NCBI RefSeq assembly: GCF_009184865.1
Contig: NZ_CP045096.1
Coordinates: 310,001 to 374,000 of the forward strand
Reading direction: 5' to 3'
From: Streptomyces phaeolivaceus
GTDB taxonomy: Bacteria; Actinomycetota; Actinomycetes; Streptomycetales; Streptomycetaceae
DNA: 64,000 nucleotides
The translations under genes were made by a program, and so were the position numbers. The notes beneath the pieces were generated by a model, which ran no database searches, was not told the origin of the DNA, and saw nothing but the letters and a program-made list of their open reading frames with translations. This document shows positions 36,072 to 46,699 of the stretch, piece after piece. Positions within the stretch are counted from its first letter, which is position 1. Each line of letters begins with the position of its first letter.

Positions 36072-36090
36072 TTAGATAAGGCAAGCCTTA
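36072..36090. promoter_or_regulatory. Iron box (DmdR/IdeR-type)
   Basis: TTAGATAAGGCAAGCCTTA matches the actinobacterial iron-box consensus TTAGGTTAGGCTAACCTAA at most positions and lies about 75-90 bases upstream of the N-hydroxylase start, so the gene should be repressed when iron is plentiful. Confidence 0.85.
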
Positions 36091-36255
36091 CCTAGCAACG
36101 GTGAGGGGGCTCATGTGCGGGTCGTCATGTTCGGGTACCAGACCTGGGGGCCACTTCCGCACGGTGGGCGGATGTCTGACGGCTCGTCCCTGAACCGGCG
36201 GGGGCGGTGGGCCCGTTCGTGACACTTCTCACAGGCGCCCGCCCCCGGCCGTGTG

Positions 36256-40089: not shown

Positions 40090-40107
40090 GTCTTCAACTT
40101 TCTTTGC

Positions 40108-40164
40108 TGAGGCTTGCCTTAACCGTAGAGCGAGCACCCCGTGAATTAGGTAACCCTTACCTTA
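40108..40164. promoter_or_regulatory. Iron boxes upstream of the siderophore uptake operon
   Basis: A strong site TTAGGTAACCCTTACCTTA is at 40146-40164 and a weaker AGGC-N2-GCCT element at 40108-40124. Both lie upstream of the first permease gene and fit DmdR/IdeR repression under iron sufficiency. Confidence 0.8.
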
Positions 40165-40219: not shown

Positions 40220-41296
40220 TCAGGACGCGGGCTGCTCCACCTTGGTGTCCGTCTCGCCGTCGACGGCCGCCGCCAGCTGCGGGGCCAGCCGCTCGACCAC
40301 GTACGGCAGGCTGAGGACCGAGACGAAGGACGTGGCGTTGCCGTAGTCGCTGGACTCGTTGACGAAGACCTCGCGGCCCTCCTTCACGACACCCACGTCC
40401 TTGTACGAGGCGTCCTTGTGCAGCTTCGCGGCGTCCCTGACCGGGTCCGCGACGATCCACACGATGGCGTCCTGGTCGAGCAGGTCGGTGCGCTCCTTGC
40501 TGATGTTGGCGCCGAACTGGTCACCGATCGCCTTGTCCAGGTCGGCCGGCAGGGAGAAGCCGAGGCCGGTCAGGATGCGCGAGCGGACGTCCTCGCTGCC
40601 GTAGACGAACATGCCCTCGTACGGGGTGGCCATGACGGCCGTGGCGCCCTTGAACTCGGGGTGCTCGTCGGCGACGGCCTTGATCTTCGCCTCGGTGTCG
40701 GCGACCGCCTCGGTCGCCTCCTTCTCCTTGCCGAGCGCCTTGCCGATGGTCTCGGTCTGCTCCTGCCACGGCACGCCGTAGTCGCTGTACGCCTTCGGCT
40801 GGGCGACCACGGGCGCGAACTTGGACAGCGACTCGTACTGCTCCTTGGTGAGTCCGCCGTACACCGCGAGGATCAGATCGGGCTGGAGGGCGGCGATCTT
40901 CTCCACCTGCGGGCCGGTGCCGGTGTCCTTGAGGACGGTCGGGGCCGCGGCGGAGCCGAGCTTGTCCGCGGCCCAGGGGCCGATGGCGCCCTTGTAGCCA
41001 CCGAGCCATTCGGTGGTGCCGACGGGGACCTTGCCGAGGGCGAGGACCGCGTCCTGGTCGGTGAGGCCGACCGTGACGATCCGCTCGGGCTCGGCCTCGA
41101 TGGTGGTGCTGCCGTACTTGTGGTCGAGGGAGACCGGGAAGGCGGACTCGCCGGAGGAGGTGCTCGCCTTGGTGCCGGTGTCCGACGCGTCGGAGTCGTC
41201 GTTCGAGGTGGAGCCGCCGCCGCACGCGGTGGCGAGGAGCAGGGTGGCGGAGGCGAGCACGACGGCGAGCCGCGGCGCTCTACGGGAGCGGAACAT
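40220..41296 (-). CDS. Iron-siderophore-binding lipoprotein
   Basis: A 358-residue FepB/FhuD-type receptor. Lipobox LLATACGGG (Cys25); the mature protein has SLDHKYGSTTIEAEPERIVT typical of ferric-siderophore binding proteins, and QPDLILAVYGGLTKEQY. It delivers ferric siderophore to the permeases at 37862-40089. It is the last gene of the ABC1-ABC2-SBP unit (its ATG overlaps the upstream stop), a unit whose 5' end has been lost at 44.5 kb, so its own promoter may be missing. Confidence 0.92.
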   Translation of the reverse strand: MFRSRRAPRLAVVLASATLLLATACGGGSTSNDDSDASDTGTKASTSSGESAFPVSLDHKYGSTTIEAEPERIVTVGLTDQDAVLALGKVPVGTTEWLGGYKGAIGPWAADKLGSAAAPTVLKDTGTGPQVEKIAALQPDLILAVYGGLTKEQYESLSKFAPVVAQPKAYSDYGVPWQEQTETIGKALGKEKEATEAVADTEAKIKAVADEHPEFKGATAVMATPYEGMFVYGSEDVRSRILTGLGFSLPADLDKAIGDQFGANISKERTDLLDQDAIVWIVADPVRDAAKLHKDASYKDVGVVKEGREVFVNESSDYGNATSFVSVLSLPYVVERLAPQLAAAVDGETDTKVEQPAS

Positions 41297-43173
41297 CAGA
41301 GGTCCTTCGGTTCGGGTTCCTGTGGAGCGATACGTGTGGGGGGCTCGGGGGCCGGCCGGGGGTCGGTGTCGCGGGCGTCCGACCAGGCCGACCAGAGGGC
41401 GGCGTAGGGGCCCCGCGCGGCGCGGAGTTCGTCGTGGGTGCCGCTCTCGACGACCCGGCCGGCCTCCATCACGACCACCCGGTCGGCGGTGGCGGCCTGG
41501 CTGAGGCGATGGGCGACGATCAGCGCGGTCCGGCCGTCCATGGCGCGGGCGACGGCCTTCTCCAGCGTCCGCGCCCCGGCGCTGCCCGCCTCGGCGGTGG
41601 CCTCGTCGAGGATCACCAGGGGCGGGTCGGCGAGGATCAGCCGGGCCAGCGCCAGGGCCTGGGTCCGCTCGCCGCTGAGGCGGTGGCCGCCGTCGCCGAC
41701 GACCGTGGCGAGCCCGTCGGGCAGGGCCTCCGCCCAGCCGAGGGCGTCCACGCGGTCGAGCGCGGCACGCAGTTCGTCGTCGGTGGCGTCGGGCCGGGCG
41801 AGCCGCAGATCGTCGGCGAGGGGGCCCGCGAAGACGTGGGTCTCCTGGGTGATCAGGGCGATCGTGCGGGAGGCGGCGGAGCCGAGTTCGGTGGGCGGGA
41901 TCCCGCCCACCAGGACGTCGCCGGTGGTGGGCGGCTGGATGCCCGCGACCAGCTTGGCCAGGGTGGTCTTGCCGGCTCCGCTGGCGCCGACGAGGGCCAC
42001 GCGTTCGCCGTGCCGGACCGTCAGGTCGATGTCGTGCAGGACGGGGTGGCCGGTGCGGTAGGCGTGGCCGAGGCCTCGGACGGTGACGTCGACGCCGCCG
42101 GCCCGGACGGTGTGCTCCGGGACCGGGGGCACCGGCTCGTCCGTGACACCGACCAGCCGGGCGAGGCCCGCGGTGGCCGACTGGGCGTCGTCGAGGAGGG
42201 CGAGAGCCGCGTTGACGGGACCGAACAGACCGTGGAAGTACAGGGCGGCGGCGGTCGTCGTACCGATGCTGGCGGAGCCGTCGCGGACCAGCCAGTAGCC
42301 GGTGACGAGGACGGCGGCCAGCCCGATGTACTCGGCGATGTGCAGTCGGCTGTAGAAGCCGATGACCAGCCGTACGCCCCGCATGGTCAGCGCCACCACG
42401 GACCAGGAGCGGTCGGTGACCCGCTCGGTGTGCTCCTCGCCGAGGCGGAACGACCGGACGGTGGAGCTGCCGCCGATGGTGTCCAGCATCTGCTGCTGCT
42501 GGGCGCCCGCGGCGACCCGCTGTTCGGCGTAGAGCGGGATGGCGCGGGCGACGTACCAGCGCGCGGTGGCGATCTGCACGGGGACCGCGAGCAGCGTGGC
42601 CAGCAGGAAACGCCAGTCGAGCAGGGCCATGGCGCCGAGTGTCAGGAAGATGGTGAGCAGGGAGTGGCACAGCGCGGGCAGCGCGTTGCGGACGGCGTCG
42701 GCGATGAGGGAGACGTCGGCGGTGACCCTGGCGGTCAGGTCGCCGGCGCCGGCCTTCTCGACCCGCTCCAGCGGGAGGGCCAGGGCGCGGTCGACGAAGC
42801 GTTCACGGAGTCGGGCGAGGGTCGTCTCGCCCAGCCTGGCCATCTGCGAGAGACCGAATCCGGCGGTGACGCCCTGGACCACGGCGACGGCCACCAGCAG
42901 GGCGGCGGTGACCGTGATGGTGTCGGCGGAGCCCCGGTCGGCGGCCAGGTCGACGATCCGGCCCAGCAGGGGCTGCACCAGCAGGCCCACGGCGGTGGAG
43001 CCCACCATCACGACGAAGGCGGACAGCGCCGGCCGCCGCTGCGGGCGCAGCAGCTCGGCGACCGCCGCCCGGGTGCGGGCCGGGGTGGCGACGGGCAGCA
43101 GTTCGGGTCCGGGGCGGTCGCCGCCACGGGGTGCGGCCTCGACCGTGGTGTCGGCGTCGGGTCGCTCGGTCAT
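41296..43173 (-). CDS. ABC half-transporter (TMD-NBD), heterodimer member with degenerate signature
   Basis: A 625-residue fused membrane/ATPase protein with six helices (about 45-320) and NBD (about 360-600). Walker A GASGAGKTT, Walker B PLVILDEAT and the H-loop IVAHRLS are intact, but the C-loop signature reads RLSGERTQALALAR rather than LSGGQ. It resembles siderophore-related half-transporters (CchG/IrtB-like). Start overlaps the upstream half-transporter stop by four bases, consistent with a heterodimer. Confidence 0.9.
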   Translation of the reverse strand: MTERPDADTTVEAAPRGGDRPGPELLPVATPARTRAAVAELLRPQRRPALSAFVVMVGSTAVGLLVQPLLGRIVDLAADRGSADTITVTAALLVAVAVVQGVTAGFGLSQMARLGETTLARLRERFVDRALALPLERVEKAGAGDLTARVTADVSLIADAVRNALPALCHSLLTIFLTLGAMALLDWRFLLATLLAVPVQIATARWYVARAIPLYAEQRVAAGAQQQQMLDTIGGSSTVRSFRLGEEHTERVTDRSWSVVALTMRGVRLVIGFYSRLHIAEYIGLAAVLVTGYWLVRDGSASIGTTTAAALYFHGLFGPVNAALALLDDAQSATAGLARLVGVTDEPVPPVPEHTVRAGGVDVTVRGLGHAYRTGHPVLHDIDLTVRHGERVALVGASGAGKTTLAKLVAGIQPPTTGDVLVGGIPPTELGSAASRTIALITQETHVFAGPLADDLRLARPDATDDELRAALDRVDALGWAEALPDGLATVVGDGGHRLSGERTQALALARLILADPPLVILDEATAEAGSAGARTLEKAVARAMDGRTALIVAHRLSQAATADRVVVMEAGRVVESGTHDELRAARGPYAALWSAWSDARDTDPRPAPEPPTRIAPQEPEPKDL

Positions 43174-44504
43174 GTCAGAACCGCCGTACGGTAGTCGGCG
43201 CACTCGTCGACGAGGCGCTCGTGGTCGCCGGTCGCGGTGACCCGGCCGTCGTGGAGGAGGACGGCCCGGTCGGTGACGGCGAGCAGGGCCGGGCTGTTGG
43301 TCACCAGGAGTGTGGTGCGTCCGCCGCGGACGTCCCTGATCCCGGCGGCGATACGGCTCTCGGTGACGGCGTCGACGGCGGTGGCGGGCTCGTGCACGAC
43401 GAGGACCGGCGCGTCGGCGGCCAGGGCGCGGGCCAGGGCGACGCGTTGCCGCTGTCCGCCGGAGAGCGAACGGCCGCGCGCGGTGACGGGGGTGTCGACG
43501 CCGTCGGGGAGCGCGCGGGCGACCTCGTCCGTGCCGGAGGCGGCCATGGCGGCGGTGACTACGGCCGGTACGGCCCCGGTTGCCGGGGACGCGGGGGCGC
43601 CGGTCGCCGCCGTGACGTTGTCCAGGACCGTGCCCTCGAACAGGTCGGCGTCGTGCTCGGCGACGAGGATCGCCGCGCGTACGTCGGTGAGGCCGAGCGC
43701 GGTCAGCGCGGTGCCGTCCAGTTCGACGGCGCCCTCGTCGGGGTCGACGCGGCGGCCGAGGCAGCGCAGCAGGGCGGCGGCGTCGGCGGGGTCGGTGGTG
43801 GCGACGCCGACGGTCTCGCCGGGGGCGATGTCGAGGTCGAGGCCGCGCAGGGTGCCGTGGGTGAGGGCGCGGAGGGTGAGCCGTCCCTCGACGCCGCCGA
43901 TCGCGACGGGGTCGGCGGAGGGTGCCTCGGACACGTCACCGGGGGCGTCCAGCACCTCCGCGATGCGGGCGGCGGAGGCGCGGCCCTGCGCCAGTTCGGC
44001 GTTGATCCAGGCGAACTCGCCGAGCGGGCCGACGATGAACAGGGCGAGGCCGACGGAGGAGACGAGTTCGCCGAGGCCGATGTCGCCGCGCGCGGCGAGA
44101 TGTCCGCCGACGAGGGCGACCACCGCGATGAACGCGCCGGTGAGGATGGTGACCACGCCGTTCTGCCAGGCCTCGGCGCGGGCGGCGCGCAGGGTCGCGG
44201 CCAGGGAGTCCTGGCTGACGCGCCGGTAGCGGGCGACGGCCGCCGTCTCGGCGCCGATGCCCTTGAGGACACGTAGTCCGGCGACCAGGTCGGCGGCGAC
44301 ACCGGAGGCCCGCGCGGCGCGTTCCCGCTCGGTCTCGCTGCGCCGTTCCAGGGGCTTGCTCAGCAGGTGCCCCAGCCACAGCAGCAGCGGGGTGCCGAGC
44401 AGGACGAGGAGGCCCAGGGCGACGTTGGTCAGCTCGCCCGGCAGCCGGCCCTCCTCGGCGCCGCCCTCGGGCGCGAGGACACGGCCGACGAGTTCGGCTT
44501 CTCG
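43170..44504 (-). pseudogene. 5'-truncated ABC half-transporter, partner of the downstream gene
   Basis: The last 444 residues of a TMD-NBD protein, beginning inside the membrane domain (RAEAELVGRVLAPEGG) with no start codon before a stop in this frame; only an internal GTG at 44156 exists. About 130 N-terminal residues, with the first helices, are missing. The signature is intact (SLSGGQRQRVALARAL), but the Walker A region reads ATTDPADAAALL with no lysine and Walker B is VLVVHEPAT, so its own ATP site is degenerate. The break coincides with the truncated amidohydrolase on the other strand. Confidence 0.8.
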
Positions 44505-44506
44505 GG

Positions 44507-45451
44507 CACAGCCCCATCGAGGGCGCCGCGTACCAGCTAGCCCAGGAGTCGGGCCGACTGCCGCTGCGGGTACGGCTGATGGTGGCCGCCGACGCGCTGC
44601 GGCCGGTGGGCGCGGACGCCGAGGACACCACGAGCCGGGCGATCGACCTCGGGCTGCGCACCGGCTTCGGGGAGGGCCCGCTCTCCCTCGGCGCGCTCAA
44701 GGTCTTCACCGACGGCGGCATGATGGCCCGTACGGCGGCCCTCACCAGCCCCTATCCGGGCGCCGACGGCGCCCAAGGAACCGGTGGCTCCGGTCAGCTG
44801 GCGGACGAGCCCGAGGTGCTGGAGAGCACGATCGTCGAGGGCCATCTCGCGGGCTGGCAGCTCGCCGTGCACGCGATCGGCGACCGGGCCCTCGATGTCG
44901 CCCTGGACGCGCTGGAGAAGGCGCAGAAGCTGAGCCCCCGCCCGGAGGCCCGCCATCGCGTCGAGCACGCCGGCCTGGTCCGGCCCGACCAGCTGCCGCG
45001 GCTTGCCGCGCTCGGCGTGACCGTCGTCATCCAGCCGAGCTTCCTGCGCTACTACGGCGACGACTACGCCACGATCATGGGCGAGGACCGGGCGGGCTGG
45101 CTCTACCGGGGCCGGGGCTTCCTCGACCACGGCGTCCGGGTCGCCGGCAGTTCGGACCGGCCGGTGGCGAACGGCGCCCCGCTGCGGGCGATCCAGTTCA
45201 TGGTGGAGCGGGCCTCGGAGTCCGGCCGCCTCATCGGCCCCGCCGAGACGCTCACCGTCGACGAGGCGCTGCGCGCGTACACCGTCGAGGCCGCCCGCGC
45301 CTGCCACTGGGAGACCGACGCGGGCAGCCTCACCCCCGGCAGGCGGGCCGACCTCGTGGTGCTGGGCGACGATCCCCGCCGGGTGGACGTGTCGCGGATC
45401 GGGGACATCGAGGTGGTGCGGACGTTCGTCGAGGGCGAGGACGCGTACTGA
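44507..45451 (+). pseudogene. 5'-truncated amidohydrolase (YtcJ-like)
   Basis: About 314 residues corresponding to the C-terminal part of a YtcJ/amidohydrolase-family enzyme: GALKVFTDGGMMAR, AVHAIGDRALDVALDALEKA, RVEHAGLV, AGSSDRPVAN and the C-terminal GRRADLVVLGDDP. The N-terminal metal-binding HxH region and normal start are missing; the frame simply begins at the junction near 44505. ATG 44579 is internal with no ribosome site. Usual length is about 540 residues. Confidence 0.8.
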
Positions 45452-45486: not shown

Positions 45487-46437
45487 TCAGACCGGCGGGC
45501 GCCGGGCCGGGATCGTACGCAGGAAGTCCGCCGACGGCACGAAGAACATGGTTCCGGTCACGGCCCGGGAGAAGTCCAGGATCGGATCGTGGCCGGCCGG
45601 CGGTTCGCCGAGGAACATCTTCCGCAGCATGGTCTCGGGGACCTCGGGGTCGCGGGCGTAGGCGATGAAGTACGTACCGAACTCGCCCTGTCCGGGCCTG
45701 CCGAAGGGCATGGCGGCGCGCAGTATGCGCTGCTCGCCGCCGTCCGGGCCGACGAGGGTGTTGACGTCGACGTGCGAACCCTCCACGTCCAGCTCCAGAT
45801 TGGTCAGTTTGGTCCGGCCGATGACCTTTTCCTGCGCCTCGACGGCGAGTTCCTCCCAGGAGTCCACGTCGTGCAGGTACTTCTGCACGAGCACATAGCT
45901 GCCGCCCCGGAAGTCGGGGTCCTCGTCGCCGACGAGGACCGTGTCGGCGGCGACGCGTCCGACCGGGTTCTCGGTGCCGTCGACGAAGCCGAGGAGGTTG
46001 CGGGAGTCGAAGTACGCGAAGGCCTGGACCTCGTCCTCCAGGGTGGCCGCGCCGCGCAGTTGCCGCATGATCTCGGCGGCCAGCGCGAAACACAGGTCGA
46101 CGCGCGTCGCGCGGATGTGGAAGAGCAGATCGCCCGGTGTGGACACGGCCCGGTGCCGGGGCCCCTCCAACTCCCGGAAGGGGTGCAGCGCGGCGGGCCG
46201 GGGCGCGCCGAAGAGTCGGTCCCAGGCCTCCGCGCCGATCCCGGCCACACAGCCCAGGGCGCCTTCGGGGCTGGAGAAGCCCACCGCCCTCTCCAACCCG
46301 GCGAGTCCGGCCAGCACCTCACGGGCCGTCGGCTCGCCGCCCGGGGCGACGGTGACGACCAGAAAGACCGCGGCGGGTGTCAACGGACCCAGCATCGGCT
46401 GCGGCAGAACGTCATCGGACACGACCGGCAGTGCCAT
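45487..46437 (-). CDS. Dyp-type peroxidase
   Basis: A 316-residue haem peroxidase. The GXXDG motif is GFVDGTENP (about 150-158); the proximal-haem His is expected in VEGSHVDVNTL and the distal Arg in RILRAAMPFGRPG. There is no Tat signal, so this is a cytoplasmic or encapsulin-targeted class B-like form. No encapsulin gene is adjacent. Standard length for the class. Confidence 0.9.
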   Translation of the reverse strand: MALPVVSDDVLPQPMLGPLTPAAVFLVVTVAPGGEPTAREVLAGLAGLERAVGFSSPEGALGCVAGIGAEAWDRLFGAPRPAALHPFRELEGPRHRAVSTPGDLLFHIRATRVDLCFALAAEIMRQLRGAATLEDEVQAFAYFDSRNLLGFVDGTENPVGRVAADTVLVGDEDPDFRGGSYVLVQKYLHDVDSWEELAVEAQEKVIGRTKLTNLELDVEGSHVDVNTLVGPDGGEQRILRAAMPFGRPGQGEFGTYFIAYARDPEVPETMLRKMFLGEPPAGHDPILDFSRAVTGTMFFVPSADFLRTIPARRPPV

Positions 46438-46699
46438 GGCTCCCCCTCTTCACGTGCCACACGTGCGCCCCACGCGTGGACCACATCCCCTCGGGACGGC
46501 TCGGGCGGCCGTTCCGCCCCCCTCACCATGCCCGGTCGGGACGGGGACGATACCCACCAGTTCCGTACACCCCGCAAACAATGATGAACGACACAACCTC
46601 GCAGGTCACAAGGGTGGCCACGGAAGTGCGGGTCCATGTTGTATACGCGAGGACCGGGACGCCCAATACTGTGCGCAGACGTCACCAGGGGGGCACCCG

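What the first reader, a model, noticed from the sequence alone, without database searches (positions are those of the whole stretch)
43170..45451. Two divergent genes lost their 5' ends at one junction near 44.5 kb
On the minus strand an ABC half-transporter gene begins inside its membrane domain with no start codon; on the plus strand an amidohydrolase begins after its N-terminal metal-site region. Their protein-like sequences meet at about 44505 within a few bases. Both genes point away from each other, so one deletion must have removed both 5' ends, both promoters and everything between. No IS or repeat marks the joint. The alternative is an assembly join of two distant contigs.
Basis: partly seen in the sequence, partly recalled or inferred. 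Interest (0 to 1): 0.72.

Follow-up and report, generated by a model that had tools for sequence, protein, structure and literature searches.

The report
Deletion beheads two neighbouring Streptomyces genes
A Streptomyces chromosome has lost about 1.1 kilobases between two genes that point away from each other, removing the starts of both genes and a probable iron-responsive switch, while close relatives keep the region; this looks like ordinary, recent gene loss, not a new kind of system.

Summary
The ABC half-transporter (minus) and the amidohydrolase (plus) lack their 5' ends and meet at 44495-44499; the first in-frame start codons are at 44156 and 44579. In 16 distinct related records the two genes are divergent neighbours, both open and near full length in 14. 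So the joint is a local deletion (1133-1172 bp against 9 of 11 relatives measured, 1065 and 1677 in the other two), not a join of distant contigs. The missing DNA was not found elsewhere in this genome, and among the printed matches from 392 genomes only the window's own spans the joint. Also lost is an iron-box-like site just upstream of the ABC gene in 12 of 12 relatives examined, so a three-gene transport unit probably lost its promoter. Two related species lost amidohydrolase sequence by other deletions that spare the ABC gene. Private substitutions give no sign of long decay. Most likely illegitimate recombination; a local assembly error is unlikely but needs reads to exclude.

The parts
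43170..44499 (-). 3' remnant of an ABC half-transporter gene (ABC_membrane + ABC_tran); lacks about the first 96 residues and a further 37 internal residues of the L039 homologue
44418..44422 (.). joint of a 111-bp in-frame deletion inside the ABC membrane domain, 5-bp microhomology GGCGA
   Evidence: 111 bp in 11 of 11 relatives measured (one search printed 105 for L052 from a wrong anchor of mine; one search gives 111)
44423..44494 (-). 72-bp ABC segment kept in native order between the two deletion joints
44495..44499 (.). joint of the ~1.1-kb deletion; CGGCT, of which the two sides share seven bases (CGGCTCT) in the closest relative L148 and fewer in most others; followed by a 2-bp difference from relatives
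44495..45451 (+). 3' remnant of an amidohydrolase gene (Amidohydro_3); lacks about the first 210 of 521 residues
41296..43172 (-). second ABC half-transporter gene, frame intact, downstream and cut off from the lost upstream region
40220..41266 (-). iron-siderophore-type binding protein gene (Peripla_BP_2), frame intact, third gene of the presumed unit; the upper coordinate is where I cut the query, not a mapped start
40146..40164 (.). remaining iron-box-like palindrome upstream of the FecCD permease genes, downstream of the beheaded unit
45487..46449 (-). DyP-type peroxidase gene, frame open, next gene beyond the amidohydrolase; same order in L039, L042, L044, L100 and L010/L148

Best explanation
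A real, recent deletion by illegitimate recombination. Shown by comparison: close relatives have an amidohydrolase gene and an ABC(half)-ABC(half)-binding-protein row reading away from each other, with an iron-box-like site next to the ABC start; the window lacks about 1.1 kb between short matches there, plus a separate 111-bp piece between GGCGA matches. Inferred: broken or stalled DNA was rejoined at short matches (microhomology-type end joining or replication slippage). Inferred consequence: neither remnant gives a working protein, the presumed heterodimeric transporter has lost one half, and the second half and the binding protein have lost their probable iron-controlled promoter.
For: Divergent neighbours in 16 distinct related records, both genes open and near full length in 14 of 16. 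Missing length 1133-1172 bp in 9 of 11 relatives measured. Flanks collinear to window 47358 in L039. Missing segment not found elsewhere in the genome. Among printed matches of the 392-genome search only the own genome spans the joint. Random joints in this stretch share 5 bp or more in 1.4% of draws; the small joint has 5, the large one 7 if L148 stands for the ancestor. Genome encodes one Ku match and three PF01068 ligase matches. Iron-box-like site before the ABC gene in 12 of 12 relatives, none between 40165 and 44505 in the window. In S. ambofaciens, repair of induced breaks left deletions of 191-23,591 bp (PMC5869714, passages).
Against: No reads and no second strain of the species were available, so an assembly fault is not excluded. 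Both frames are still open and private non-synonymous/synonymous counts (ABC 3/6, amidohydrolase 7/11) are like those of relatives; this fits a recent loss but equally fits whole genes wrongly assembled. The counts are small. The microhomology at the large joint falls to about three bases with most relatives other than L148, and a 2-bp mismatch follows it. In PMC5869714 the 191-23,591-bp scars were from breaks in the central chromosome; breaks in the arms gave large deletions and circularization (passages).
Confidence: 0.87

Rival explanations
1. Local assembly error: the strain has the whole region, but about 1.1 kb and 111 bp were dropped by the assembler or came from chimeric reads.
For: Frames still open and no sign of relaxed selection in the remnants; no second strain to check.
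Against: Only 5-7 matching bases at the joints, too short to collapse as a repeat (inference). Two separate losses and a 2-bp change would be needed. The genome is rated 99.95% complete in 2 contigs.
Confidence: 0.08
2. Join of two distant contigs or a large rearrangement.
For: None found.
Against: The genes are divergent neighbours in 16 distinct related records, flanks are collinear, and the missing piece was not found elsewhere in the genome.
Confidence: 0.01
3. The shortened ABC gene is a functional short form.
For: The 111-bp loss is in frame and the frame is open.
Against: No start codon before 44156, about two thirds through the remaining membrane stretch; half of ABC_membrane is missing; none of 83 relative loci examined has this form.
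Confidence: 0.03

Closest known systems
End-joining deletions in Streptomyces (induced breaks in S. ambofaciens, PMC5869714; abstract and passages seen)
   Same: Kilobase-range deletion in a Streptomyces whose genome encodes Ku; a figure legend there marks microhomologies at repair scars
   Different: Here natural, cause not observed; there these scars came from the chromosome centre; here a second small deletion lies 72 bp away
Iron-box (DmdR1/IdeR-type) controlled genes of Streptomyces (passages of PMC12161575 and PMC6401478)
   Same: Relatives have TTAGGTAAGGCTAAC-type sites 46-48 bp before the presumed GTG start in L148 and L039; the unit contains a ferric-siderophore-type binding protein (below NCBIfam cut-offs)
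   Different: Regulator binding not tested; in this strain the site is deleted
Heterodimeric ABC transporters with one degenerate ATP site, such as TM287/288 (PDB 3qf4, E 4.7e-40; the best-scoring matches there are ABCB1 entries)
   Same: Two half-transporters side by side; the first has LSGGQ but no canonical Walker A, the second a canonical Walker A and an altered signature (read; motif definitions recalled)
   Different: Substrate and direction unknown; pairing inferred; first half truncated here

Membership tests
Pseudogene by deletion | Whole homologues exist and the copy lacks required parts | tested here: met
Pseudogene by deletion | No functional product made | not testable with these tools
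   Only the lack of a start codon near the joint was shown
Microhomology-type end-joining deletion | Short identical stretch at each joint, longer than chance | tested here: inconclusive
   GGCGA (5 bp) at the small joint; at the large joint seven bases with L148 but about three with most other relatives, and a 2-bp mismatch follows. Random joints: 5 bp or more 1.4%, 3 bp or more 8.9%
Microhomology-type end-joining deletion | Made by an end-joining pathway | not testable with these tools
   Ku and ligase matches present, which is only permissive
Iron-box regulated unit (in relatives) | Iron box near the promoter | tested here: met
   12 of 12 relatives: 11 score 14-16 of 19, L044 scores 12; one of 20 shuffles of 11.5 kb reached 14; window lacks it
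Iron-box regulated unit (in relatives) | DmdR1 binds and represses | not testable with these tools
   none
Amidohydrolase (Amidohydro_3) | Whole domain with N-terminal metal site | tested here: not met
   Profile 189-469 of 472 only

The most novel reading that the evidence does not exclude
Both deletions and the 2-bp change came from one complex repair or template-switching event (72 bp of native DNA kept between two short-match joints), and the spacer between these two genes is a loss hotspot: S. scabiei and S. stelliscabiei lost amidohydrolase sequence there by other deletions that stop just short of the iron box, while this strain's deletion crosses it.
Probability: 0.25. Interest if true: 0.35.

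Novelty: new member of a known kind. Interest (0 to 1): 0.2.

Why it matters
It shows how one deletion in a divergent spacer can disable two genes and take a probable iron-controlled promoter from a transport unit, with a two-joint scar that can be read because relatives with the whole region exist. It matters mainly for annotation: neither remnant should be listed as a working gene. The repeated loss of the amidohydrolase side in related species is a small evolutionary point.

Tried and rejected
Considered a translocation: the missing DNA was not found elsewhere (besides the local flanks only three weak matches of 32-40 bases). Considered a rescue copy: the best other ABC match in the genome is 44% identical, the best other amidohydrolase matches 37-38%. 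Considered that other species share the truncation: L103 looked N-terminally short, but its N-terminus aligns at 46% identity; L067 has runs of N and an N-terminal piece. Six weak loci (L112-L117) were left out of the count. Searched viral contigs for the joint: 0 matches, of little weight. A strict iron-box search of the window gave nothing; the relaxed pattern gave six matches. The FecCD gene gave no substitution count because I cut it in the wrong frame; rows failing the identity, coverage or stop filters were dropped there too (L039 from the second ABC gene and the binding protein; L151 and L041 from the amidohydrolase; L149, L152, L151 and L041 from the peroxidase). The sigma-70 scan found nothing at 43900-45000, which says little for Streptomyces promoters. 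In one search the small deletion in L052 was printed as 105 from a wrong anchor; one search corrects it to 111.

Full report
Observation. The minus-strand ABC half-transporter and the plus-strand amidohydrolase run without stops to a common point. Pfam finds ABC_membrane only from profile position 140 and Amidohydro_3 only from position 189, while the homologues in L039 (S. europaeiscabiei by its record title) are covered from position 2. The first in-frame start codons are GTG 44156 and ATG 44579. Neither remnant has a start near the joint.

Comparison. The window lies at 310001-374000 of contig 2 of a 10.18-Mb genome in two contigs, so in a chromosome arm if contig 2 is the linear chromosome (inference). 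In 18 loci, 16 distinct records, the amidohydrolase is the divergent neighbour of the ABC gene (L039, L042/L150, L043, L044, L045, L050/L155, L052, L055, L057, L100, L104, L148, L149, L152, L153, L154), 65-998 bp apart and at most 254 bp apart in 12 of the 16. In 14 of the 16 both genes are open and near full length; the L055 amidohydrolase has a frame break and a stop, and the L100 ABC gene matched only to residue 328 in that test. In four more loci an amidohydrolase lies elsewhere in the stretch, in one (L041) it is partial, and in 60 of 83 none was seen, so the neighbourhood is a trait of this clade and not of all carriers of the ABC gene. The order amidohydrolase-DyP peroxidase is shared by L039, L042, L044, L100 and L010/L148.

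Size. Relative to L148, L149, L150, L152, L039, L044, L045, L100 and L052 the window lacks 1143, 1172, 1148, 1171, 1147, 1164, 1158, 1133 and 1169 bp; relative to L043 1065 and to L155 1677 bp, whose spacers are shorter and longer. A DNA search of 392 genomes of the genus gave 151 with a match, the window's own included; of the rows printed only the own genome spans the joint, and the others end at query 1108-1125 or begin at 1196-1214 (not all rows were printed). The N-terminal part of the ABC gene was found in 83 of 83 loci, in two of them (L067, L103) through a second alignment piece. The lost segment was not found elsewhere in this genome.

A second deletion. The alignment breaks again at 44418-44422: 11 of 11 relatives measured have 111 more bases inside the ABC membrane domain (with L052 corrected). 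It is in frame (37 codons). The 72 bases between the joints keep native order. GGCGA (5 bp) is shared at the small joint. At the large joint CGGCT is kept; the two sides share seven bases in L148 and about three in most other relatives. Random joints in this stretch share 5 bp or more in 1.4% and 3 bp or more in 8.9% of draws. After CGGCT the window differs from relatives by two bases.

What was lost. In 12 of 12 relatives looked at, a sequence of the form TTAGGTAAGGCTAACTACA lies upstream of the ABC start; 11 score 14-16 of 19 against the consensus and L044 scores 12; one of 20 shuffles of an 11.5-kb stretch reached 14. It lies 46 and 48 bp before the presumed GTG in L148 and L039. The consensus is recalled; iron boxes and DmdR regulation in Streptomyces are described in passages of PMC12161575 and PMC6401478. 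The window has no such site between 40165 and 44505; its own lie at 40103-40121 (weaker), 40146-40164 and 36072-36095. The second ABC gene and the binding protein follow the first ABC gene in nine of nine loci tested (seven distinct records), and the window's FecCD and ATPase genes were not found beside them there, within the flanks held, at E 1e-30. The unit that lost its switch is therefore probably three genes long (inference).

Function (inference). The first half-transporter has LSGGQ but no canonical Walker A; the second has a canonical Walker A but an altered signature (motifs recalled). They would share one competent ATP site, so loss of the first half should disable the pair. The amidohydrolase lost its N-terminal metal-site region.

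Timing. Substitutions private to the window are 3 non-synonymous and 6 synonymous in the ABC remnant (relatives 0/1 to 9/9) and 7/11 in the amidohydrolase remnant (relatives 0/7 to 7/11); in the second ABC gene 9/27, the peroxidase 5/15, the binding protein 5/2 (ratio 0.75; L148 2/1, L041 5/0). The remnants show no sign of long decay. The binding protein, which keeps its frame, has the highest ratio of the window's genes, but on seven changes.

Recurrence. S. stelliscabiei (L041) keeps only an amidohydrolase 3' part; its joint removes the equivalent of L039 8350-9527, and its peroxidase stretch does not align either. S. scabiei (L040/L151) lacks the equivalent of L039 6677-9547, amidohydrolase and peroxidase both, with 48 bases unaligned at the joint. 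Both stop before the iron box and leave the ABC gene whole. The endpoints differ from each other and from the window's, so at least three deletions are the simplest account (inference).

Mechanism. Illegitimate rejoining at short matches is the simplest account. The genome encodes Ku and PF01068 ligases. In S. ambofaciens, repair of induced breaks in the chromosome centre produced deletions of 191-23,591 bp with NHEJ signatures (PMC5869714, passages), with microhomologies marked in a scar figure legend; breaks in the arms gave larger rearrangements. Which pathway acted here cannot be told, nor whether the two deletions were one event.

Verdict. An assembly fault remains possible, at about 8% by my estimate.

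Noticed in passing
40146-40164: Iron-box-like palindrome between the binding protein gene and the FecCD permease genes; the FecCD/ATPase genes were not found next to the binding protein in nine loci (seven records), suggesting a synteny break near 40.2 kb.
   Followed up: partly
36072-36095: Overlapping iron-box-like matches just beyond the ATPase gene.
   Followed up: no
43170-44417: The ABC half has a degenerate nucleotide site (no canonical Walker A, H in place of D in Walker B), also in L039, L040, L041 and L042, so this looks like a family trait and not decay.
   Followed up: partly
L041:9071-9530: S. stelliscabiei carries another amidohydrolase remnant, from a different deletion that ends before the iron box.
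   Followed up: yes
L055:7816-9379: The amidohydrolase of this relative has a frame break and a stop, a further sign that the gene is dispensable.
   Followed up: no
L149:6105-6123: A second strong iron-box-like site lies just beyond the amidohydrolase 3' end in this relative.
   Followed up: no
L152 (genome G254): The ABC gene occurs twice in genome G254, near both ends of its contig in opposite orientation, as expected of terminal inverted repeats.
   Followed up: no
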